Assembly (NCBI GenBank): GCA_001871235.1
Contig: MNUV01000022.1
Location: 1 to 13,332 of the forward strand
From: Candidatus Falkowbacteria bacterium CG1_02_41_21
Lineage (GTDB): Bacteria > Patescibacteriota > Patescibacteriia > Patescibacteriales > UBA12465
Direction of reading: 5' to 3'
DNA length: 13,332 nt
The notes below the pieces were generated by a model that was not told the origin of the DNA, made no database searches, and worked only from the letters and a program-made list of their open reading frames with translations. Both the position numbers and the translations under genes were made by a program. This document shows positions 2,334 to 11,981 of this stretch, piece by piece (positions within the stretch are counted from its first letter, which is position 1; every line of letters begins with the position of its first letter).

Positions 2334-3263
2334 TTATAATGATAAAACTTTTTTAATATCCGCCAAGCTCTCCACCCGAACCATCCGGGCGCGCAGTTTT
2401 TTGGCTCCGGCCAACCCGTTAACATACCAGCATAAATGCTGGCGCATTTCCAATATTCCGGCTCGCCCTTTCTGCTTAAACATTAATTGCGCCTGCCGGA
2501 ACGCTAAACGAGAAATTTGTTCCGGACTTATCTTAAACTTAGAATCTTTTAACTCTCTAAAAATCCACGGACGGCCTAAAGCTCCCCGACCAATACCCGC
2601 GCCATCGACTCCGGTCTCAGACAGCACTTTCGCCAGGTCATCATAATTATGAATTCCGCCGTTAGCCAAAATAATACCGGAAAAATATTGGCGCGCCTCT
2701 CTAATCGCCTTTAAATCAATTTCCCCGTTAAACCCTTGCGCCAAAGTCCGGCCATGAATCATCAGAGCGGAAATGGGCAAATCGGCTATATTTTGCAAAA
2801 AATCTTTTAGCTTGACCTTCCCCGACTGAGTTCGGACTTTAATGGATACCGGCAACTTGGTATTTTTAAGCACCGCTTCCAGCACCGCCCGAGAATTTGG
2901 CAAATTGGCCATTAGGGCCGAACCGGCTCCCTGCTTGGTGACTTTTTTGACCGGACAACCGAAGTTAATATCAATCCCGTCGGGTTTTATTTTCTTCTCA
3001 ATAATCCGAACAGCCGCCGCGAAATGCTCCGGTTTGGAACCAAAGAGTTGGACCACGTAAGGCCGTTCGGAGGAGGTAAACTGTAAGAGCTTTAAAGTTT
3101 CTTCGGGGTTATAAAATAAAGCGGTGGCGCTGGCCATTTCACTGTATAAAACATCAGCCCCGTATTTTTTGACTAAGATCCGAAAAGGGCTGTCAGTCAA
3201 TCCGGCGAGGGGCGCCATCGCGAGGATCGGAGTTTTTAATTTCCGCCAAAAATTCTTTGCCAT
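2334..3263 (-). CDS. dusB: tRNA-dihydrouridine synthase (DusB type)
   Basis: 309 aa, normal family length. It has an FMN-binding TIM barrel starting PILAMAPLAGLTDSPFR, with catalytic Cys in NFGCPVKKV (C103), flavin/tRNA-contacting K142 (SIKVR), H170 in MIHGRT, the ANGGI phosphate loop near 200-204, and GIGRGALGRPWIF near 223-235. It reduces uridines in the tRNA D-loop using NADPH. The C-terminal helical RNA-binding domain (about 240-309) is present. The gene lies between cysS (3 nt gap) and tsaB (2 nt gap), so it is almost certainly co-transcribed and probably translationally coupled. No Shine-Dalgarno precedes the ATG; the upstream bases are AATAATTT. DusB is the best subfamily guess from the GCPVKKV and GRGALGRPW motifs. 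Confidence 0.93.
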   Translation of the reverse strand: MAKNFWRKLKTPILAMAPLAGLTDSPFRILVKKYGADVLYSEMASATALFYNPEETLKLLQFTSSERPYVVQLFGSKPEHFAAAVRIIEKKIKPDGIDINFGCPVKKVTKQGAGSALMANLPNSRAVLEAVLKNTKLPVSIKVRTQSGKVKLKDFLQNIADLPISALMIHGRTLAQGFNGEIDLKAIREARQYFSGIILANGGIHNYDDLAKVLSETGVDGAGIGRGALGRPWIFRELKDSKFKISPEQISRLAFRQAQLMFKQKGRAGILEMRQHLCWYVNGLAGAKKLRARMVRVESLADIKKVLSL

Positions 3264-3266
3264 AAA

Positions 3267-4637
3267 TTATTTTTTCATGAGCGTAAACCCGTTCGGACCG
3301 TCTTTTAACAGATATCCCTGATCTTCAATTATCTGCCGAAGTTCATCCGACCGGGACCAATCCTTAGCGATTCTAGCTTCTTCTCGTTCTTCGGCCAGAG
3401 CCATAATTTCCGCCGGAATCTTTTCCGCCAATTCCAAACCCAGAACTAAATCAAAATCTAAAACAGTCGCCAACTTATCCGCATCGCTCAGTTTTGATTT
3501 CAACATTTCAGAGGCTACCGCCAAAGCCTGAGGCAAATTTAAATCATTATTAATCGTCTCCAAAAATTTATATTTATATTCCTTGCCAATCTTTCCCACC
3601 TCAGTTCCCAAATCGTTGACTTGGTGACGCAGATGATCCCAGCCATTCTCCGCGTTTTTGATAATCTCTTTGCTGTATTCCATGGGCTTGCGATAGTGGA
3701 CGTTTAATATGGCGTAACGATAGGCTAAGGGGTTGATTCCTTTTTTGATAAAAGCATTGTCCAGAGTGAGAAAATTACCGTCGCTCTTGGCCATTTTCTT
3801 GCCCCCGGCAATATTCAAAAAAGCGCCATGCAACCAATATTTGAAAAATGGCCGGCCGGTGGCCGCCTCGCTTTGAGCGATTTCATTAGTATGATGAACA
3901 TTAATATGGTCAATCCCGCCGCAATGAAGATCTAAGTTCGGACTTAAATATTTCAAACTCATGGCCGAACATTCAATATGCCAACCCGGGAAACCCACGC
4001 CCCAAGGAGATTCCCATTCCATCTGTCTTTTAGCGCCAACCGGAGAAAATTTCCATAAGGCAAAATCAGTCGCGTTCCTCTTGGCCTCATTCTTGGCCAC
4101 CCGAGCGCCTTCCCGCAACTCATCTAAATTCAAGTGACTTAATTTATTGTATTCGGGAAATTTAGCGGTGTCAAAATAAACACCGTCGGGAGTAAGATAA
4201 GTGTAGCCCCTAGTTTCCAGGGTTTTTATGAGTTCAATCTGCTCCGGAACATTATCAGTCGCTTTGCACCAAATAGTCGGTTCAATGATATTTAAGTTTA
4301 TTAAATCTTTTTTGAAGGCGGCGGTATAAAATTCGGCCAGATCCCAAGCGCTCCGCCCTTCTCGTTTCGAACCCTCTTCCATCTTATCTTCCCCGTTATC
4401 AGTATCACCCGCCAAATGGCCGACATCGGTAATGTTCATAACATGTTGGACGGTATAACCGTTATAAACCAAAACCCGCTTCAAGATATCTTCAAACAGA
4501 TAAGTCCGCAAATTCCCGATATGAGCAAAATTATAAACCGTCGGGCCGCAAGTATAAAGTCCGACTAAATCAGTTTTCAGGGGAATAAATTTTTCCAATT
4601 CGCGGCTTAAAGTGTTATACAAAAATAATTCTGACAT
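3267..4637 (-). CDS. cysS: Cysteinyl-tRNA synthetase
   Basis: 456 aa, usual length. A class I synthetase charging tRNA-Cys. The HIGH motif is FAHIGN (39-42) and the KMSKS motif is KKMAKSDGN (281-285 for KMAKS). The zinc site is complete: C30 (CGPTVYN), C223 (WHIECSAMS), H248 and E252 (HHTNE), with the C-to-H spacing of 25 as in the family. GWHIECSAM and LHCGGIDHINVHHTNE are diagnostic. The C-terminal DALR-type helical domain and small anticodon-binding region follow. The start at 4637 is the only one that retains the N-terminal LFLYNTLSRE strand. It follows the conserved unknown gene by 6 nt and precedes dusB by 3 nt within the operon. Confidence 0.97.
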   Translation of the reverse strand: MSELFLYNTLSRELEKFIPLKTDLVGLYTCGPTVYNFAHIGNLRTYLFEDILKRVLVYNGYTVQHVMNITDVGHLAGDTDNGEDKMEEGSKREGRSAWDLAEFYTAAFKKDLINLNIIEPTIWCKATDNVPEQIELIKTLETRGYTYLTPDGVYFDTAKFPEYNKLSHLNLDELREGARVAKNEAKRNATDFALWKFSPVGAKRQMEWESPWGVGFPGWHIECSAMSLKYLSPNLDLHCGGIDHINVHHTNEIAQSEAATGRPFFKYWLHGAFLNIAGGKKMAKSDGNFLTLDNAFIKKGINPLAYRYAILNVHYRKPMEYSKEIIKNAENGWDHLRHQVNDLGTEVGKIGKEYKYKFLETINNDLNLPQALAVASEMLKSKLSDADKLATVLDFDLVLGLELAEKIPAEIMALAEEREEARIAKDWSRSDELRQIIEDQGYLLKDGPNGFTLMKK

Positions 4638-4643
4638 AATTTA

Positions 4644-5621
4644 TTAGGGCTTAAGTTTTTGATGAGTTTCTTTCATTTTCTGCAATGATTTTTTAAAATT
4701 TAATAAATTTAAACGCATATTATTTTGGCCCATCCGCGCTTTCCAATTAAGTCCCTCTTCGGTCTGGCTCCAAACCTCTTCGCCCAGAGTTTCTTTCAAT
4801 TCCTCTTGTTCCGACAACAGGCTATTTCTACTGGCAAAAAGATTTTCTTTAACATTAACATGACCCTTATAGAGAGTGGCCATCTGGCCGTCAAAAGAGC
4901 TTAAGATACGCTGAATAATACTACTTTCAACTTCAGAAACTTCAGTCGTAGCCAAGGCCGGCAATAATTTTTCCAAATCAGCTTCATCTAGAGACATAAA
5001 AAAAGCCGGGACGTTTTTAATGGCCTTTTTCTGCAGCTCACCGTTCCTGAAAGTGGCTCCGTATTTAACATAAGCGCCATTATGGCCGATGATATCATAA
5101 ATTTTTTGGCCTTTGCGATAATAACTGTAAGCATCATCGGCTCCCATTTCATCCACGCCGCAAATCGGAGCGCCGGTTTCCAAATTAATAATCATCATAT
5201 CAACTCCGTGGCAATAATCATCATAAGCGGCCGTCCGAGCGATAATAAAATCCTCCCCGAAAAATTTATAGAAAAGTAAAGTCAGAACCTTTTCGGTTAT
5301 TATTCCCCGGGCTTTTTCCCGATCAATTAGCCATTCCTCTCGAGTCATATTCCTCTCGGCCGCAAATACCCTTTCTTTTTCTTCCACGAATTTTTGGTCA
5401 GTTTCCTTATTAGGAAATTTATATTCGGCGGTATCAATGGAAACATCGCTTTTCAAAAAATGACCAAAACGATTGTTGGTGGCGGCGGCCATATTTTTCA
5501 ATCCGGAATCTAACATGTCATTATAACCTTCCTTGGCTTCAAGGTCGGCCCTTAGTTCCAACTTACTAGGTTTTTTGTCAAACTGGCTCAGATCAATATT
5601 ACCGACTATTTTTAACCCCAT
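4644..5621 (-). CDS. Conserved-looking unknown protein, possible nuclease-like fold
   Basis: 325 aa, cytoplasmic, with no signal or TM segment. The N-terminus (MGLKIVGNIDLSQFDKKPS) is followed by acidic helices. The central part (about 100-180) has EKVLTLLFYKFFGEDFIIA, then YDDYCHGVDMMI and GVDEMG. This has the E...D-hydrophobic-strand layout seen in PD-(D/E)XK-like CPR families that carry '(Y/F)DD...GVD' signatures. However, no Lys follows the last acidic pair, so nuclease activity is only a suggestion. Residues about 265-325 are charged helices, likely coiled coil. It sits between alkD (12 nt) and cysS (6 nt). I cannot assign a function. Confidence 0.75.
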   Translation of the reverse strand: MGLKIVGNIDLSQFDKKPSKLELRADLEAKEGYNDMLDSGLKNMAAATNNRFGHFLKSDVSIDTAEYKFPNKETDQKFVEEKERVFAAERNMTREEWLIDREKARGIITEKVLTLLFYKFFGEDFIIARTAAYDDYCHGVDMMIINLETGAPICGVDEMGADDAYSYYRKGQKIYDIIGHNGAYVKYGATFRNGELQKKAIKNVPAFFMSLDEADLEKLLPALATTEVSEVESSIIQRILSSFDGQMATLYKGHVNVKENLFASRNSLLSEQEELKETLGEEVWSQTEEGLNWKARMGQNNMRLNLLNFKKSLQKMKETHQKLKP

Positions 5622-5633
5622 ATGATTATTGGA

Positions 5634-6335
5634 TTATTTTTTATTTAAAAACTTTTTTCTTTTACTCTCCGAAAATTTTTCAATGGCATAACGCAACATC
5701 GTTCGTGGCAGACGAGCGGAATATTCTTCCAAAAATTCCAACTCAGTCTCAAGATTCCGTTTCCCCACCTCTCGCAACATCCAACCGACCGCTTTATGAA
5801 TCAAATCATGACTGTCATTTAAAAGGATGGTCGCTATTTTGATAGTGTCTCCGAACTGATTTTCTTGGATAAAAGCCAAAGTGGAAATAATCGCTATCCG
5901 GCGCTCCCATAAATTTCCGGAATGGGCCAACTTAAGCAATAGCTTCCGATTTCGGCTCAATAGATAATCCCCCAAAATCTTCGGAGCGGATAAATCAACC
6001 AAATCCCAATTATTTATATTATTGGTGTTTTTCAAGTAAAAGTCAACGTAATTCCGCCGGGGCCGACAGTCGGCTCCGGCATACTGCAAAATTAACACTA
6101 AAAGCGCCGTCAAGCGAAATTCGTGAATTTTAGAATTCAACAAAGTTTGAATCTCGGCTAGAGTGGCGTCCATGTTATTTTTAGCGACCGCTCGCTGTTG
6201 TGGGACCATTATTCCCAAAAAAACATCACCCGCGCCATATTGGTTCTGACCGGTTTTAAAAAAACGAGCTAAGTCCAAAGCTTTGACGGGGTTAGCCAGA
6301 GCGCGCAATTCTTTTTCAATTTTATTTTTAACCAT
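5634..6335 (-). CDS. AlkD-like DNA alkylation repair protein (DNA glycosylase)
   Basis: 233 aa, right size for the AlkC/AlkD HEAT-like-repeat glycosylases that remove cationic 3-methyladenine and 7-methylguanine. The diagnostic elements are NNWDLVDLSAPKIL (W110, D114), LWERRIAIIST (W143, R145, R146), and DLIHKAVGWMLREVGKR (W185, R188). These align with the Trp-Asp-Arg-Trp set that cradles the lesion in Bacillus AlkD (W109, D113, R148, W187). The C-terminal RTMLRYAIEKF is also typical. It lies 4 nt after the PH-domain gene and 12 nt before the next gene, so it is mid-operon. It is likely functional, since all expected key residues are visible. Confidence 0.92.
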   Translation of the reverse strand: MVKNKIEKELRALANPVKALDLARFFKTGQNQYGAGDVFLGIMVPQQRAVAKNNMDATLAEIQTLLNSKIHEFRLTALLVLILQYAGADCRPRRNYVDFYLKNTNNINNWDLVDLSAPKILGDYLLSRNRKLLLKLAHSGNLWERRIAIISTLAFIQENQFGDTIKIATILLNDSHDLIHKAVGWMLREVGKRNLETELEFLEEYSARLPRTMLRYAIEKFSESKRKKFLNKK

Positions 6336-6339
6336 ATTA

Positions 6340-6813
6340 TTATCGGCTCGCCGCCTCCTGTTTCAGAGCCCCAGCCTCAGCTTTAGTCAGATAAAAGGAA
6401 AATTCGGGGTGATTACGGCTATCGCCGGAATTGAGATTGAATTGCTGGGGCGACGAACTCCAAACCCGCACCACCACCAAACCGAAAACCTGGATTAAAG
6501 GGTCATAGCTGACATCAATACTCTGAATAGATTTAAAAGCGATAGTTTTCATATTTTTAACGATGACCCCCGACCTAACGGTAAAACTATCCGGTCCGAC
6601 TTCCAAACTAAAATAATAATATTCCAAATAAGCGATGAAAAAGATGATCGCTCCTAAAATAAATAAAATTAGAGCTAGATATAAAGTCAGCTTTAAATCA
6701 CGGCTCAACCACCAAGTCGGTAAAACCCCAACTAACCACAAAATGATCACTTGAAATAAATGAAAAGCTAAAACCGCTCTGGGTAATTTATAAGATTTTA
6801 ATATGGCCGCCAT
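6340..6813 (-). CDS. Bacterial PH-domain (bPH2, YdbS-like) membrane protein
   Basis: 157 aa. Two TM helices (about 14-36 and 42-64) are followed by a single bPH2 domain (about 66-150). The domain signature is FTVRSGVIVKNMKTIAFKSI, then QSIDVSYDPLIQVFGLVVVRV, matching the family pattern 'G...........I..IQ.v.v...pl.r.fGl..v.v.s'. Family members are membrane anchored with the PH barrel at the membrane surface; no catalytic role is known to me. It is 5 nt downstream of the nuclease gene and 4 nt upstream of alkD. Confidence 0.85.
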   Translation of the reverse strand: MAAILKSYKLPRAVLAFHLFQVIILWLVGVLPTWWLSRDLKLTLYLALILFILGAIIFFIAYLEYYYFSLEVGPDSFTVRSGVIVKNMKTIAFKSIQSIDVSYDPLIQVFGLVVVRVWSSSPQQFNLNSGDSRNHPEFSFYLTKAEAGALKQEAASR

Positions 6814-6818
6814 AATTT

Positions 6819-7589
6819 TTAAAATAAACCCGGTTGAATTTTATTAACCCCGCTCGCCGCCGCCACATACTGGCAATAATCGCAATCCGGGCCAGAGTCG
6901 GGAATATTATCGGACAGTAAACATTTCTGGGCGGCAACGATGGTTGACTCAATCCAATCGTCAGCGCCGGTATAAGGAATTAATTTCACATCGAACTCCA
7001 ACTTGGCGTCAAAAGCCACCCGATCGGTCTGACCATTACAATAGACGAAATAACCGGTATCAGAAACCTTAAAACCATTCTGCCTGAGCAACCATTGATA
7101 AACTTCCATTTGTCGTTTGTAAGCGATTTGCCAATCGGCTTCAATATTGACCTCGCTCTCTTTGCTGGTTGATTTATAATCCACCACGTACAAAACTTTT
7201 TTGGCATCAACCCAAACATCATCCACGGCGCCGAAAATCAATAAATTGGTCGCCGGATGTAAATACCGGACTCCCGTAAAATTAGTCCGCCACTCATTCA
7301 TCTGAGGATGATCAAACGGAACCAGGTCCAGGCCATAAGCGGCCAGCAGCGGATGATGCGAATTCTGCGCTCGATGCCGATCAAACTCTTTTTTGAGCAG
7401 CGTATCAACGGCGCTATTTAAATTAAACGGAAAGCCGGGCGGTTGAGAAATGCCCAAACGCCGATCCAAATAAAAGCAACGCGGGCAATTCAAGAACAAA
7501 TCTATCTTGGAGCGGCTCAGCTTAAAAACCTCAGAACTCTGGGGATCAAATAAATTTTTCGTTTTGTGAGCGTTGTAATAAACCGACAT
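6819..7589 (-). CDS. PD-(D/E)XK nuclease, RecB/Cas4-like, with Cys pairs
   Basis: 256 aa. The N-terminal LSRSKIDLFLNCPRCFYLDR box (C35, C38) is the one that opens RecB/AddB/Cas4-family nuclease domains. The catalytic core is FGAVDDVWV (D123, D124) and VVDYKST (D137, K139), followed by the QMEVYQWLL helix (motif IV-like Q and Y). The C-terminus has PDCDYCQY, giving a second Cys pair and suggesting a 4Fe-4S cluster or zinc site joining the two ends, as in AddB and Cas4. No CRISPR array or cas gene is nearby and there is no helicase domain, so I read it as a free-standing CPR RecB-like nuclease. Residues missing from the classic quartet geometry cannot be judged without alignment. It lies 5 nt from both neighbours. 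Confidence 0.87.
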   Translation of the reverse strand: MSVYYNAHKTKNLFDPQSSEVFKLSRSKIDLFLNCPRCFYLDRRLGISQPPGFPFNLNSAVDTLLKKEFDRHRAQNSHHPLLAAYGLDLVPFDHPQMNEWRTNFTGVRYLHPATNLLIFGAVDDVWVDAKKVLYVVDYKSTSKESEVNIEADWQIAYKRQMEVYQWLLRQNGFKVSDTGYFVYCNGQTDRVAFDAKLEFDVKLIPYTGADDWIESTIVAAQKCLLSDNIPDSGPDCDYCQYVAAASGVNKIQPGLF

Positions 7590-7594
7590 AGAGG

Positions 7595-7933
7595 CTAATC
7601 TTTAAGGATTAAATTGGTAAACCAAGAAACTAACCAGAGGAACAAAGACAAGAAGAAGGCCGGCCAGAAACCCAGAACCGAAAAGCCTTTGACAAAACTG
7701 GCGACAAACAAGACCAGTAAAGAATTGATTACCAAAGTAAAAAGACCGAGAGTCAAAATGGTAATCGGCAGAGTTAGCAGGATTAAAAGCGGCCGGATAA
7801 CGGCATTGACCAATCCCAAAATAATCGCCGCGATCAGGGCGGTATAAAAATTGGCGACATCAACGCCGCTGATTAAATACGAAGCAGCTAAAAGAGCCAA
7901 AGCGTTTAACAGCAAACGAACGATTAATTTCAT
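7595..7933 (-). CDS. Phage-holin-family (4-TMS) membrane protein
   Basis: 112 aa, very hydrophobic, with segments at about 4-22, 30-46, 50-79 and 86-108. The strand order and motifs GLVNAVIRPLLILLTLPITI and LGLFTLVINSLLVL are characteristic of the '4 TMS phage holin, superfamily IV' (DUF360-like) proteins. These are widespread in bacteria and usually not phage-borne; the real role is unknown. It is the first gene of the minus-strand run, with only 14 nt between its ATG and the stop of the IS30-family transposase remnant. Its promoter must therefore be very close, inside the IS end, or further upstream. There is no Shine-Dalgarno upstream (GGTAACTATAGAAAT). Confidence 0.85.
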   Translation of the reverse strand: MKLIVRLLLNALALLAASYLISGVDVANFYTALIAAIILGLVNAVIRPLLILLTLPITILTLGLFTLVINSLLVLFVASFVKGFSVLGFWPAFFLSLFLWLVSWFTNLILKD

Positions 7934-7947
7934 ATTTCTATAGTTAC

Positions 7948-7965
7948 CTAGTTTCTAGAATCTAG
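7948..7965. repeat. Near-perfect palindrome at the IS30 remnant end
   Basis: CTAGTTTCTAGAATCTAG is a palindrome apart from one mismatched base pair. It overlaps the last codons and stop of the transposase remnant. It may be part of the terminal inverted repeat of the element or an operator for the adjacent operon; the sequence alone does not decide. Confidence 0.5.
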
Positions 7966-8088
7966 CGCAACAGCGCTGTTAATTAATTGATTAAATACTT
8001 GGTATGGTGTTTTGAAGTCTAGGGATTGTCTGGGACGGCCATTAAGTAGGTCTTGGACTTTCTTCACTTCATATTCGATCGGCCAAAG
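7948..8088 (-). pseudogene. IS30-family transposase remnant (C-terminal ~47 codons)
   Basis: Read on the minus strand up to TAG at 7950-7948: IEYEVKKVQDLLNGRPRQSL, then DFKTPYQVFNQL and INSAVALDSRN. The 'LN.RPR..L.(F/Y).TP.EVF' signature and the VAL.. ending identify the extreme C-terminus of IS30-type DDE transposases. The DDE catalytic core and the whole 5' part are missing. The fragment joins the truncated Avd gene in a different frame at roughly 8080-8100, so the right-hand boundary is approximate. It marks the place where the downstream half of the DGR cassette would be expected. Confidence 0.8.
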
Positions 8089-8254
8089 TGCCGTTAGCTC
8101 GGTAAATATTGGTAATTATGGCCGCCGTTTCTTTTTTTAAATTCTCGCCCACCGTATATTTATATTCCTTTTTCATCTCGACGGAAAAATTAAATATCAC
8201 TAGCAGCAAATCATAACTAGTTTTATAGACCGGCAGGTTATCATAGGTGGGCAT
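8069..8254 (-). pseudogene. avd: Truncated Avd-like four-helix-bundle protein (DGR accessory)
   Basis: 61 codons open with MPTYDNLPVYKTSYDLLLVI and run through KYTVGENLKKETAAIITNIYRAN. This is the first half of the Avd/IVS-23S four-helix-bundle family, in the form found beside CPR DGR reverse transcriptases. Full-length proteins are about 110-130 aa. After RAN (about codon 54) the sequence leaves the family, continues GTLADRI and stops, exactly where the IS30 transposase tail begins in another frame. Avd forms a pentamer that binds reverse transcriptase and template RNA; this half protein lacks at least helices three and four and should not function. It starts 73 nt downstream of the target-gene stop, the normal DGR order. 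Confidence 0.85.
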
Positions 8255-8274
8255 ACCAACAAAAATTATTTACA

Positions 8275-8298
8275 CCCGCCTCACAATAGCGAGGCGGG
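8275..8298 (-). other. GC-rich hairpin just downstream of the DGR variable region
   Basis: CCCGCCTC (8275-8282) and GAGGCGGG (8291-8298) form a perfect 8-bp stem with an 8-nt loop, 29 nt past the target-gene stop. In the Bordetella phage DGR an 8-bp GC-rich hairpin or cruciform shortly downstream of the variable region is needed for efficient retrohoming; position and stem length match here. On the minus strand it is followed by TGTAAATAATTTTTG, so a weak terminator is the alternative. Confidence 0.65.
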
Positions 8299-8302
8299 GG
8301 AA

Positions 8303-8322
8303 AGAGACAAAGAGACAAAGAG
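8303..8322. repeat. Short tandem AGAGACAA repeat
   Basis: Two exact 8-bp units AGAGACAA (8303-8310, 8311-8318) and a partial third lie between the hairpin and the target-gene stop. It may be a spacer of the DGR homing site or simple slippage. Confidence 0.5.
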
Positions 8323-8327
8323 TCGAA

Positions 8328-9585
8328 TCAGTCCTGGACACACCGCACCGAGAACCCGTAGACTCGGAGATCGTAGAGGCCGTAGAAATTGGAGACCCTG
8401 GAGTAAAGGTAGCCGTACCAAGCGTTGATCGGATTACCCGAGTTAGGCAATGACAACCACAGGAGGGCGTAGCTGCCGCGATTGAGGAACGACCCATTGT
8501 TTAAACGGCAGCCGGCAGGAAGAGCGGAAAAATTATAATCATTAGTGCCGTCCCAAGTTATGGGGGTGCTGGTGGGAGATGCCTTTAATTTGCCGCCGGC
8601 AGTGGTGCAAGTGCCACCATCTAAATTACAGCCGGGGTCGGAATTTTGGGCTAGAATTTGGAGTTCAACAAAACTGGGGATATGCCAGCCAATGGGACAA
8701 ACGCCCTGTCTCTTAGTGGCGGCCGGGTCAGGATAATCGCAAGCCGGGGAATGTTCGGTTGAAACGCAGGTGGTGCCATTGCAAGTGTAATTAGTGTAAT
8801 TGCAATTATAGGGCAACTGGATGGCTTCGGCCCATTCATAGAGACCGCCATCGGTGGTGCAATAGGAAGCGGTATTACTATAGCAATATTTTTGAATACC
8901 GCTATAACCTTGGCAGGACCATAAACCCGAACCGCCGGAAACATCGGTGCAGTCATCAGTGTTGCCAGGAATGCCGTCGAAACCGTCAGTAGAGCTACTG
9001 CTACCAATATATGTTCCAATATCCAGATTTTTGGCGAACCAACATTGAGTGCCGATTCTGATGATGGGATAAGATCCACCACCATAGCTGATTTCGCCAT
9101 GGCAACAATCGCTATTTAATATTCCGGCTGGCGTGGCACATTTTAGACCGCCGGAGGTCAGAGATCCGACAGTGTTACCAGTACAGAAATTAATGGCATA
9201 GGAGGCGATCTGGACTGGGGGTATAGGTGAACGTATTCTGGCCAGTAGTACAGGAGCCGTCAGAGGGAGCGGAGGCAGTCGGAATGATAGCCAGGTAGGT
9301 CGTAGTGCCGCTCGTGGAAGTGGAATAGAGAGAATTAAAACCCCATTCTGTAACCGTGGGATAGCGGTTTTGGTCATTAAAAAATAGTTCCAGAGCGGTC
9401 TGGATCTGTTTAATATCCGCCACGCGTTTGGCATCTCTAGCTTTAGCCCGGGCGTTAGACAGAGAAACAATGGAAATGGTCACCAAAATACCAATGATGG
9501 CAATCACGACGAGTAGTTCAATGAGAGTAAAAGCTGACTTGCTTTTCGGTGAGCAATCTATTTGGCTGAAATATTTTGGTTGCAT
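8328..9585 (-). pseudogene. DGR target: prepilin-FISUMP protein, split by a +1 frameshift
   Basis: Two overlapping frames belong to one gene. Frame one (9585 to about 9221) is a type IV prepilin: KSKSAFTLIELLVVIAIIGI, with the cleavage site after A18, mature F1 and E5, a long hydrophobic helix, then ARAKARDAKRVADIKQIQTA. At TACCCCCAG (five C, 9221-9217) the frame breaks; without it the protein would stop nine codons later. Dropping one C gives continuous ...TYTPVQIASYAINFCTG... and joins frame two. Frame two has a FISUMP-type C-type-lectin-like domain (QCWFAKNLD, GLYEWAEAI, CPIGWHIPS) and ends GFSVRCVQD. The corrected protein would be 418 aa: a surface pilin-like stalk with a diversified tip. 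The frameshift may be mutation, phase variation or sequencing error. No strong promoter is visible; it begins 45 nt after the upstream RNase gene. Confidence 0.85.
8331..8515 (-). other. DGR variable region (VR) of the target gene
   Basis: The last ~60 codons after CRLNNGSF are rich in codons of the form NNC at solvent-loop positions: TAC, CTC, TTC, GTC and GGC alternating with fixed codons (for example TAC GGC CTC TAC GAT CTC CGA). This is the product of adenine-directed mutagenesis of AAC/AAT codons in a template repeat. Fixed parts (NAW, GFSVRCV) match the invariant residues of FISUMP-type DGR targets, where template-encoded versions read as runs of Asn. The invariant 3' end GGGTTCTCGGTGCGGTGT is the candidate IMH. 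The left boundary is approximate. Confidence 0.75.
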
Positions 9586-9630
9586 AGATTTGAAAATTTA
9601 AATTATTCTAAATACTTAGTTAATTAAGTT

Positions 9631-10998
9631 TTATAACTCATAAACCATCCCCAGCTCTGGGACGATTGGTTTAATCTTTAATTCTTGAGTAATTTTCTCC
9701 GCCAGGACATTGCTGGACTCTTCTTCGCCATGATTAACAAAGATGGTAGCCGGTTTCGGACTCTTGATATGACTCAGCCAATTCATAATCCGCGGCGAAT
9801 CGGCGTGAGAAGAAAAAGAATTGATAACCGAGATCTTAGCGAGAACTTCCACCGATTGATCATCGACAAAAACGGTTTTGTCTCCTTGCAAAATCTTCCG
9901 GCCCAAAGAACCTTGGGCTTGATAAGCCACGAAAAGCAGCTGATTCAACTTATTATCCAAATTCAATTTCAAATGAAATGGGATTCGACCCCCCACGCAC
10001 ATCCCCGAAGAAGCCAGAATAACTTTCGGCGGCTGAGTGACATTAATTTTTTTGGACTCATCTTTAGTCAAAGTAAATTTCAACCCCGGAAAATCAAAAA
10101 TATCATCGCCGGATTTAATCAGATTCCAAGAATTACGATTATAGAGATCCTCATAATGACGATAGATCTCCACCGCCTTAATCGCCAAAGGACTGTCCAA
10201 AAAAATTGGCACTCGAGGAATCTTTCTATTTTCCATCAAATAATTCAATTCAAACAAAATCTCCTGAGTTTTTTCAATCACAAAAATCGGAATCATCAGC
10301 ACTCCGCCCAACCCGACAGTTTCAATAATCGCCTGACGTAATTTATTAATTCCCTCTTCCTTGGTTTCATGAACCCCCCGAGCATAGGTCGATTCCGTGA
10401 TGACAAAATCAGCCCCGTCGGCAAACTCCAAATCACGGATAATCGGCGAGGGAGAATTACCTAAATCGCCGGAAAAAATAATCTTTTTGGTTCGGCCCTC
10501 ATCGGCAATATAAAGTTCAATGAAAGCGGAGCCTAAAATATGGCCGGCATCCCGAAATTTTAACTTAATATTATCATCAATAAAGCTCATCTGGTCATAA
10601 GGCAAAATCTCAAAATGATTCATCAACCCAGCCACATCTTCTTCGGTATAAAGCGCCTCATGGCCGGAAGCCAGGGCTTCATGGGCAATAATCCGCGCCG
10701 CATCCAACAACATGATTTCAGCCAAATCTCGCGTCGGTTCCGTGCAAAAAATCTTACCCCGAAAACCATCTTTATAAAGCTTGGGCAAGCGGCCGCAATG
10801 ATCCACATGGGCGTGAGTCAAAAAAACATATTCAATTTCGGCGGGATCAAAATGAAAATCTTCCAAATTACGCTCCGCCGCAAAACGCTTACCCTGAAAA
10901 ATTCCGCAATCCACCAAAAATTTCTGGCCCTCATGTTCCAATAAATTGCAGGAACCAGTCACCTCCCGACAAGCTCCGTGGAAAGATAATTTAATCAT
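9631..10998 (-). CDS. Beta-CASP metallo-beta-lactamase RNA-processing exonuclease/endonuclease
   Basis: 455 aa from the ATG at 10998 (MIKLSFHGACREVTGSCNLL). A 22-codon upstream extension of the frame lies inside the previous gene and looks unlike the family, so I reject it. It has a metallo-beta-lactamase fold with THAHVDHCG (H62, H64, D66, H67), GHILGSAF (H153) and FSGDLG (D178). A beta-CASP insert (about 200-400) includes FLDSPLA and ASSGMCVGGR. The C-terminal RNA-specificity part has NSFSSHADSP (H398) and FVNHGEEES (H423). These are the motifs of the CPSF73/RNase J-related 'RNA metallo-beta-lactamase' family that cleaves RNA. The stop of the M50 gene overlaps the start as ATGA, a translational coupling signal. 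Confidence is high for family and moderate for substrate. Confidence 0.94.
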   Translation of the reverse strand: MIKLSFHGACREVTGSCNLLEHEGQKFLVDCGIFQGKRFAAERNLEDFHFDPAEIEYVFLTHAHVDHCGRLPKLYKDGFRGKIFCTEPTRDLAEIMLLDAARIIAHEALASGHEALYTEEDVAGLMNHFEILPYDQMSFIDDNIKLKFRDAGHILGSAFIELYIADEGRTKKIIFSGDLGNSPSPIIRDLEFADGADFVITESTYARGVHETKEEGINKLRQAIIETVGLGGVLMIPIFVIEKTQEILFELNYLMENRKIPRVPIFLDSPLAIKAVEIYRHYEDLYNRNSWNLIKSGDDIFDFPGLKFTLTKDESKKINVTQPPKVILASSGMCVGGRIPFHLKLNLDNKLNQLLFVAYQAQGSLGRKILQGDKTVFVDDQSVEVLAKISVINSFSSHADSPRIMNWLSHIKSPKPATIFVNHGEEESSNVLAEKITQELKIKPIVPELGMVYEL

Positions 10999-11510
10999 AA
11001 TAATTTTACATAATGAATAAAATAGGCCTGGCCGATGTAGAATAAAAAAATGGCGTAAGCCCAATCAAAATAAAATCGCTTCAATAAATTTAATAAATAT
11101 AAAATCAGGACTAAGGGATAAAGCAAGATAACCAACGGGTTTTTCCAAAAATTCCGATTGGCCATGAGCAGCAACGATTCAGCGTCCCCCGTGGACGGAA
11201 TCGCTTGCAAGGCGACGGCTATCCCCAGATACAAGAACAATAAATCCCACCAATCATAAAGCGGACGGACCTGAGCAAACAAAAACATAGCCAGATAAGA
11301 ATTAATTACCAAGGGGCCGAAAGAAATTAACCAACTGCTCATAAAACCTTTCGGCTCCGCATGAACCACATAACCGGCCACCGGCTGAAATCGAAATAAA
11401 TTAATCTTATAAATTTTAACCCCGCTTAAAAAACAAAAAAAGGCATGCGCCAGCTCATGGACAATAACTCCCGGAGCCGTCAAAATAGCGTAAAAATAAT
11501 ATAATTTCAT
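10995..11510 (-). CDS. M50-type site-2 membrane metalloprotease
   Basis: 171 aa polytopic membrane protein. The zinc motif HELAH (H18, E19, H22) lies within the first TM helix (PGVIVHELAHAFFCFLSG). The second motif, usually N-P-D-G, is represented by PSTGDAESLL (D109), which keeps the metal-binding Asp. About four to five TM segments follow. It is shorter than RseP/SpoIVFB types and lacks PDZ or CBS domains. It resembles compact M50 proteins of CPR and Firmicutes; its substrate is unknown. It is the first gene of a two-gene unit with the beta-CASP RNase, overlapping by 4 nt. Its promoter places the transcription start at or next to the ATG. Confidence 0.85.
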   Translation of the reverse strand: MKLYYFYAILTAPGVIVHELAHAFFCFLSGVKIYKINLFRFQPVAGYVVHAEPKGFMSSWLISFGPLVINSYLAMFLFAQVRPLYDWWDLLFLYLGIAVALQAIPSTGDAESLLLMANRNFWKNPLVILLYPLVLILYLLNLLKRFYFDWAYAIFLFYIGQAYFIHYVKLL

Positions 11511-11516
11511 AAATTA

Positions 11517-11545
11517 ATTATATCATAATTGGAGACTAAAACCAA
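11517..11545 (-). promoter_or_regulatory. Leaderless promoter of the M50-RNase operon
   Basis: On the minus strand TTGGTT (11545-11540), a 17-nt spacer and a perfect TATAAT (11522-11517). Only six bases (TAATTT) separate the -10 box from the ATG at 11510, so the transcript should begin at the start codon itself. The promoter faces away from the plus-strand promoter at 11558. Confidence 0.75.
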
Positions 11546-11557
11546 CCCCGATTATTA

Positions 11558-11586
11558 TTGACAATCTCCGATCATTAATATAAGAT
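11558..11586 (+). promoter_or_regulatory. Promoter of the 103-aa gene
   Basis: Consensus TTGACA (11558-11563), a 17-nt spacer and TAAGAT (11581-11586). This leaves a leader of about 17 nt before the ATG at 11610 with no Shine-Dalgarno, only an A-rich run (AACATAAAAAATG). Confidence 0.7.
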
Positions 11587-11609
11587 GGCGATAACTTAAA
11601 ACATAAAAA

Positions 11610-11921
11610 ATGAGCGCAATAGACTTTGACAGGATTTACGTCCCGCCGTTTCACAACGAGCGGGACAAGATTAAAGAACTTGTCCGAATCGCTCTGGAAA
11701 ATGGCTTTAAATGCCTGCCAGATATCAGCGTTGAGGAACAAGTCCAAAAATTAACCGAAAAAAAGAACTATCTGGTTCTGGAAAAATTTAAAACCGAGTT
11801 AACAATATCCAACAAAGAGGCGTCCAGCATCATGCCTCGTTTAGGTAATGACGATGTCAAAATCTATAGTCTGGAAAAAGCCCGAGAATGGATTATGGCC
11901 AAAGCCGAAGAAATCAAATAA
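11610..11921 (+). CDS. Small unknown cytoplasmic protein
   Basis: 103 aa, MSAIDFDRIYVPPFHNERDK through KIYSLEKAREWIMAKAEEIK. It is charged and mostly helical with no signal or TM. A central KNYLVLEKFKTELTISNKEA segment may contain one strand. I do not recognise the family. Coding reality is supported by its own promoter (TTGACA-17-TAAGAT), a strong terminator nine bases after the stop, and composition like its neighbours. The opposite strand has a shadow ORF that I discard. It is a single-gene transcription unit placed between the divergent M50 operon and rnhB. Short acidic C-terminal helices could suggest an adaptor or regulator, but that is speculation. Confidence 0.75.
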   Translation: MSAIDFDRIYVPPFHNERDKIKELVRIALENGFKCLPDISVEEQVQKLTEKKNYLVLEKFKTELTISNKEASSIMPRLGNDDVKIYSLEKAREWIMAKAEEIK

Positions 11922-11929
11922 GAAATTAG

Positions 11930-11957
11930 GCCGTTTGAACATTCAGACGGCTTTTTT
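11930..11957 (+). terminator. Rho-independent terminator of the 103-aa gene
   Basis: GCCGTTTGAA (11930-11939) pairs with TTCAGACGGC (11942-11951) with one G-U pair, followed by TTTTTTATTTT. The run-out reaches within 10 nt of the rnhB -10 box, so the two units are insulated. Confidence 0.88.
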
Positions 11958-11963
11958 ATTTTA

Positions 11964-11972
11964 TGTTATAAT
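11964..11972 (+). promoter_or_regulatory. Extended -10 promoter of rnhB, leaderless or nearly so
   Basis: TGTTATAAT: the extended -10 TGn followed by a perfect TATAAT (11967-11972). There is no good -35, as the terminator occupies that place. Nine bases separate the hexamer from the ATG at 11982, giving a leader of about 2-3 nt. Confidence 0.7.
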
Positions 11973-11981
11973 ATAGGCGCT

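What the first reader, a model, noticed from the sequence alone, without database searches (positions are those of the whole stretch)
7948..9585. Decapitated diversity-generating retroelement: target and half an Avd remain, RT and TR are gone
Directly visible: a prepilin-FISUMP gene with a VR-like 3' end, a post-VR hairpin, then the first ~54 codons of an Avd-type protein fused to the last ~47 codons of an IS30-family transposase. Established: DGRs need Avd, a template repeat and a reverse transcriptase, normally right after Avd. None follows; the next gene is an ordinary holin-family protein. Inference: an IS-associated deletion froze a hypervariable surface protein in one state, unless another DGR in the genome still supplies RT and TR in trans.
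Basis: partly seen in the sequence, partly recalled or inferred. Interest (0 to 1): 0.82.

Follow-up and report, generated by a model that had tools for sequence, protein, structure and literature searches.

The report
Displaced, broken remnant of hypermutation system
A Falkowbacteria-like genome carries a dead fragment of a gene-diversifying retroelement, cut short beside a transposon piece and lodged between two ordinary genes; such decay is already known in other bacteria, so this is a tidy new example rather than a new kind of system.

Summary
On the minus strand (9585-8069) lie a prepilin-FISUMP target, a VR-like end, a hairpin and the first ~59 codons of an Avd, which abut an IS30-type transposase tail at ~8075. 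Same-genus genome G005 shows the order target-Avd(114 aa)-TR-RT, so this Avd is truncated. No matching TR and no FISUMP-type RT was found in the assembly (85.6% complete).

Three points change the interpretation. (1) The target changes frame within 9203-9229, between its prepilin and FISUMP parts; homologues read straight through. The gene is broken, not "frozen". (2) It was probably not beheaded in place: in both same-genus relatives the flanking MBL and holin genes lie 16-18 bp apart; here 1.7 kb lies between them, with the IS end on the holin side. (3) The genome keeps an intact-looking DGR of another type (C41) and a second RT cut by a contig end, so only this system is seen to be lost.

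Four of the genome's six FISUMP genes are disrupted, and sister genome G004 has another Avd, cut elsewhere. Transposon-degraded DGR loci are published. New member of a known kind; modest interest.

The parts
9190..9585 (-). Prepilin part of the target gene (N-terminal methylation motif), ending at a stop reached through the frame change
   Evidence: PF07963 E 2.5e-8; homologues continue in another frame
9203..9229 (-). Region of the frame change that splits the target
   Evidence: tblastn with two G005 targets and two own paralogues: frame 2 ends at 9229-9208, frame 3 starts at 9224-9203
8328..9227 (-). FISUMP (Fib_succ_major) part of the target, including the VR-like end, stop at 8328-8330
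   Evidence: PF09603 E 1.3e-22; 48% aa identity in the best segment to the G004 target
8327..8516 (-). VR-like region
   Evidence: alignment to the G005 TR: mismatches at 26/47 TR adenines v 44/134 other bases, p 0.0057
8275..8298 (-). Post-VR hairpin, 10-bp stem, 4-nt loop
   Evidence: DNA fold z -4.89; G005 equivalent z -5.41; G004 equivalent z -2.10
8069..8254 (-). Avd N-terminal fragment (61-aa ORF, ~59 codons of Avd homology)
   Evidence: PHROG Avd E 2.2e-5; 75%, 70% and 46% aa identity to G004, G005 and G007 Avd
8074..8076 (.). Junction between the Avd fragment and the IS piece
   Evidence: Avd homology to G004 ends at 8076, IS homology starts at 8074
7944..8074 (-). 3' tail and terminal end of an IS30-type element
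   Evidence: 93% to C47:46-171, 93% to C17:1-76, 41/42 to the C42 end; the C17 copy is HTH_38 + rve
7934..9630 (.). Segment between the MBL stop and the holin start (1,697 b); this spacer is 18 b in G004 and 16 b in G005
   Evidence: synteny by tblastn and ORF ends; spacer sequences

Best explanation
A relocated, inactive remnant of a FISUMP-type DGR. Shown: an intact locus in the same genus (G005) has the order prepilin-FISUMP target with VR, hairpin, Avd, TR, RT. In this genome a piece holding a target and the first half of Avd, ending in an IS30-type element end, lies between an MBL-fold gene and a holin-family gene that are adjacent in both same-genus relatives. Avd is cut at ~codon 59, no matching TR or FISUMP-type RT is in the assembly, and the target's frame is broken. 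Inferred: IS30 activity (insertion plus deletion, or movement of the segment with an IS end) separated this piece from TR and RT and put it here. Without RT and TR the VR no longer receives mutagenised cDNA (DGR mechanism: established knowledge), and the target has since decayed. The FISUMP frame is still open over 299 codons and the Avd fragment shows dN 0.12 v dS 1.07 against G004, so decay probably began recently relative to the species split.
For: Relatives: G005 target-Avd-TR-RT with TR/VR mismatches at 25/48 adenines v 11/131 others; G007 Avd-TR-RT after a target cut by its contig start, 30/67 v 8/134. Truncated Avd and sharp IS junction. MBL-holin adjacency in G004 and G005, 2 of 2 same-genus genomes. 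Frame change in the target with 4 of 4 queries, while the 9 other window genes that had a G004 query and the same 9 with a G005 query were each hit in a single frame. No TR-like match: the best non-self hit of the VR query is 34 bases at 85%, for a stretch upstream of the VR, whereas the same kind of search recovers G005's TR-VR pair at 80%. No FISUMP-type RT in own or G004. Four of six own FISUMP genes disrupted.
Against: The genome is 85.6% complete in 61 contigs; RT and TR may lie in gaps. One RT (C22) starts at a contig edge, so its TR is unseen. The MBL-side end of the insertion is not defined: an IS-end-like 12/15 match there is equalled by 95 of 2000 shuffles, and the IS left end does no better (530 of 2000). 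Adenine bias of the VR is modest and the NNC test failed. Pfam's Avd-like model is hit below its cut-off. Avd dS against G004 (1.07) is lower than that of holin (2.46) or MBL (2.23), over only 58 codons and with saturated values, which could mean later arrival rather than simple descent.
Confidence: 0.78

Rival explanations
1. One reading: a native DGR was beheaded in place by an IS-associated deletion, leaving a working surface protein frozen in one sequence.
For: Sharp Avd-IS junction at 8075; 299-codon open FISUMP frame.
Against: Frame change between prepilin and FISUMP; the flanking genes are adjacent in both same-genus relatives, so this does not look like the ancestral DGR site.
Confidence: 0.08
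2. Remote target served in trans: an RT and TR elsewhere, in missing sequence or beyond the C22 contig edge, still rewrite this VR.
For: A second RT fragment at C22:3-485 with its upstream part off the contig; trans activity is described for other DGRs (passages of PMC10907252).
Against: C22's RT matches the G005 FISUMP-DGR RT at only 45% over 111 aa, against 55% nearly full length for G007. DGRs of the other type in own C41 and G004 C29 have their TR-VR pair in targets that are not among the FISUMP hits. The target is frameshifted.
Confidence: 0.07
3. Assembly artefact: the contig is chimeric at the IS repeat, or the frame change is a base-call error.
For: Three other IS pieces lie at or within 45 bases of contig ends (C47, C17, C42); the window shares 37 exact bases with the C42 end.
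Against: The Avd-IS junction lies inside the IS where the two sides share almost no sequence; the 9 other window genes compared show no frame change, and disruptions recur in four of six FISUMP genes.
Confidence: 0.05

Closest known systems
'Degenerate' DGR loci of Thiohalocapsa PB-PSB1 (PMC10907252; passages seen)
   Same: DGR loci missing RT or TR, with transposon remains replacing or interrupting components and duplicated target genes
   Different: There each class has one complete locus, and VRs at DGR 4 and 5 match DGR 2's TR at all non-adenine sites; here no matching TR was found and the target is frameshifted
Remnant target genes in Treponema denticola isolates lacking RT and TR (PMC4891356; passages seen)
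   Same: Target gene kept after loss of the core DGR
   Different: Here half an Avd and an IS end are also kept, and the piece lies at a site that is empty in relatives
FISUMP-type DGR at G005:C12 (same genus)
   Same: Prepilin-FISUMP target, hairpin, Avd start; 75% DNA identity over 240 bases after the target
   Different: G005 retains full Avd, TR and RT; it sits near a Rep gene and a serine recombinase
   Same: Target plus truncated Avd with no RT or TR after it
   Different: Avd cut ~20 codons later, next to an LD-carboxypeptidase C-terminal piece (PF17676), and no IS30 tail aligned there

Membership tests
Diversity-generating retroelement (complete) | DGR-type reverse transcriptase with the target | tested here: not met
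   None in the window's contig; two RVT_1 hits elsewhere in the genome, neither of the FISUMP-DGR type
Diversity-generating retroelement (complete) | Template repeat matching the VR except at adenines | tested here: not met
   No TR-like match in the assembled genome; ~14% of the genome unseen
Diversity-generating retroelement (complete) | Full-length Avd | tested here: not met
   ~59 codons against 114 aa and 111 aa in G005 and G007
Degenerate DGR remnant | Target, post-VR hairpin and Avd start collinear with an intact DGR of a relative | tested here: met
   Collinear with G005
Degenerate DGR remnant | Adenine-biased difference between VR and a TR | tested here: inconclusive
   Only relatives' TRs available: p 0.0057 (G005) and 0.0099 (G007); NNC codon excess p 0.135
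Trans-diversified remote target | VR identical to a distant TR at non-adenine sites | tested here: not met
   No such TR in the assembled genome; ~14% unseen
IS30 family element | HTH_38 plus rve transposase (family assignment from this pair is recalled) | tested here: met
   In the C17 copy, itself cut by the contig start; the window keeps only a 93%-identical tail and end
IS30 family element | Two terminal inverted repeats and a short target duplication at this insertion | tested here: inconclusive
   Right end present; the MBL-side 12/15 match is equalled by 95 of 2000 shuffles; a TAA on both sides was read by eye

The most novel reading that the evidence does not exclude
An IS30-type transposase moved the target plus half Avd as cargo, using one true IS end and a weak IS-end-like sequence 5' of the target. 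That would offer one route by which prepilin-FISUMP genes came to be scattered (6 genes here; 15 and 16 PF09603 places in the two sister genomes), and so seed orphan DGR targets across a genome.
Probability: 0.12. Interest if true: 0.5.

Novelty: new member of a known kind. Interest (0 to 1): 0.3.

Why it matters
It gives an example of DGR decay in Falkowbacteria-like genomes for which the empty site, an intact relative and a second cut Avd are all at hand in one genus. It also warns that a FISUMP gene is no proof of DGR activity: of the 39 family genomes searched, 16 carry FISUMP domains, but only 4 have an RT closely similar to the G005 FISUMP-DGR RT (E below 1e-90).

Tried and rejected
Trans supply by the C41 DGR: rejected, its TR pairs with its own VR, and the window VR finds only a 12-base chance match in C41. 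Window VR sharing a TR with other own FISUMP genes: an alignment of five of the six VR ends (C8 left out) shows, by eye, differences at all kinds of positions and no shared template. TR of G005 as bait in own and G004: best hits 17-26 bases. IS end at the MBL side: weak, not relied on. NNC codon test of the VR: not significant. A first fold of the G004 stretch (695-770) missed the hairpin and showed nothing (z 0.38). PDB search with the Avd alignment: one hit, E 0.39. Literature: no paper in the held library has both 'Falkowbacteria' and 'diversity-generating retroelement'; this says nothing about papers not held.

Limits of the counts: the 39-genome counts include the window's own genome and genomes of 80-100% completeness, so absences are uncertain. 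One search used 9 of 39 family genomes, another choice of 9; one search used all 39. In one search, 24 query ORFs had a hit and at least 4 had none; only the window and C41 were tested, and the holin gene was too short to be included. One search counts PF09603 places at E 1e-6 or better; whether each has a VR was not checked. The G007 RT match runs past one TAA near its end, and the G007 target is cut by its contig start.

Full report
What is there. On the minus strand of the window, between an MBL-fold gene (stop at 9631) and a PF04020 holin-family gene (7595-7933), lie a prepilin part (9190-9585, PF07963), a FISUMP part ending in a VR-like region (8328-9227, PF09603), a hairpin (8298-8275), an Avd fragment (8069-8254) and an IS30-type transposase tail (8074-7944). 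The window is contig C36 of a 635,779-base, 61-contig genome, 85.6% complete.

The Avd is truncated. The same-genus locus G005:C12 reads target, target, Avd (114 aa), TR, RT on one strand. Its TR and nearer VR differ at 25 of 48 TR adenines and 11 of 131 other bases. G007:C22 has a target cut by the contig start, then Avd (111 aa), TR and RT, with differences at 30 of 67 adenines and 8 of 134 others (the stretch compared runs slightly past the repeats). The window's fragment is 75% and 70% identical in protein to G004 and G005 Avd and matches only profile positions 12-64 of PHROG 'Avd protein of DGR'; Pfam's 23S_rRNA_IVP is hit below its cut-off. DNA homology to G004 ends at 8076 and homology to the IS begins at 8074. 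The Avd frame stops at 8069, so Avd and transposase are not one reading frame.

The target is broken. Against two G005 targets and two paralogues of the same genome, the window gene matches in frame 2 for the prepilin part and in frame 3 for the rest, the change lying within 9203-9229. By contrast, nine other window genes are each hit in one frame by their G004 and by their G005 counterparts. Of the genome's six FISUMP genes, C10 and C22 are whole, while the window's, C31 (match ends about 40 residues early, at the VR), C33 (two frames) and C8 (only the middle matches, internal TAG) are not (that the C31 tail goes on in another frame was read by eye).

The locus looks like an insertion. In G004 and G005 the genes for M50 protease, MBL, holin, PD-(D/E)XK, PH, AlkD-like, an unknown and cysS follow in the same order as here, with one extra ORF in G004 between PH and AlkD-like (gene names other than holin are my reading of the sequences). 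There MBL and holin are separated by 18 and 16 bp; here by 1,697 bp. The IS end lies next to the holin gene. The MBL-side end is undefined: a 12/15 match to the IS end is equalled by 95 of 2000 shuffles.

Is there an RT or TR elsewhere? The genome has two RVT_1 hits. C41 carries a complete-looking DGR: RT, bAvd on the other strand, TR, and VR in a target without a FISUMP hit; in the best 70-base window 6 of 6 TR-VR mismatches lie at TR adenines, and 13/31 adenines v 10/124 others over a longer span that passes the repeat edges. C22 has an RT fragment that starts at the contig edge. Their best stretches match the G005 RT at 42% and 45% over 117 and 111 aa, while G007's matches at 55% over nearly full length. 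The window VR finds no TR-like partner in the assembled genome, though the same kind of search finds G005's TR-VR pair. The missing 14% leaves room for one.

A second truncation. In G004 the Avd homology runs ~20 codons further and gives way to an LD-carboxypeptidase C-terminal piece. The two cuts differ in place and partner, so I infer that the visible breaks are independent; an earlier shared loss of the RT cannot be excluded. G004 also has no FISUMP-type RT.

Timing. The Avd fragment shows dN 0.12 and dS 1.07 against G004 (58 codons), so it was probably under constraint for most of the divergence. Its dS is lower than that of holin (2.46) and MBL (2.23), which may mean the cassette moved between lineages later; the sample is small and the values are saturated.

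Wider pattern. FISUMP domains occur in 16 of 39 family genomes, RTs close to the G005 type (E below 1e-90) in 4 of 39, all four among the 16. So 12 of the 16 FISUMP-bearing genomes show no DGR RT of that type, some of them being incomplete; whether their FISUMP genes ever were DGR targets was not tested.

Known before? Degenerate DGR loci with transposon damage, and trans targets, are described in Thiohalocapsa PB-PSB1 (PMC10907252, passages), remnant targets in T. denticola isolates without RT and TR (PMC4891356, passages), and a DGR clade restricted to Patescibacteria in PMC8144416 (passages). This case is a new member of that known kind.

Noticed in passing
L003 (own C41) 9659-11979: A separate, intact-looking DGR with RT on the minus strand, bAvd on the plus strand, TR and VR with adenine-biased differences; a close relative of it lies at G004:C29.
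   Followed up: partly
L004 (own C22) 3-485 and L156 (G004 C46) 3946-4830: An RT of a second type sits at a contig edge in both genomes; the G004 copy is interrupted by a TAG and, by eye, seems to lack about 29 residues.
   Followed up: partly
L023 (own C8) 3813-4004 and L020 (own C10) 1-192: Two other FISUMP genes also lie near transposase pieces at contig ends (rve_3; Zn_Tnp_IS91).
   Followed up: partly
L043 (G005 C12) 7916-10642: The FISUMP DGR of G005 is followed by a Rep protein (REP_ORF2-G2P) and a large serine recombinase, which suggests that it rides an integrated mobile element.
   Followed up: no
L043 (G005 C12), within 60 bases upstream of 4206: A run of 12 G precedes a promoter-like TATAAT of the second target, a possible phase-variable tract (read by eye).
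   Followed up: no
L154 (G018 C27) 3052-7999: A DGR with an RT close to the FISUMP type, beside a 990-codon frame that reaches the locus edge and holds a FISUMP hit.
   Followed up: no
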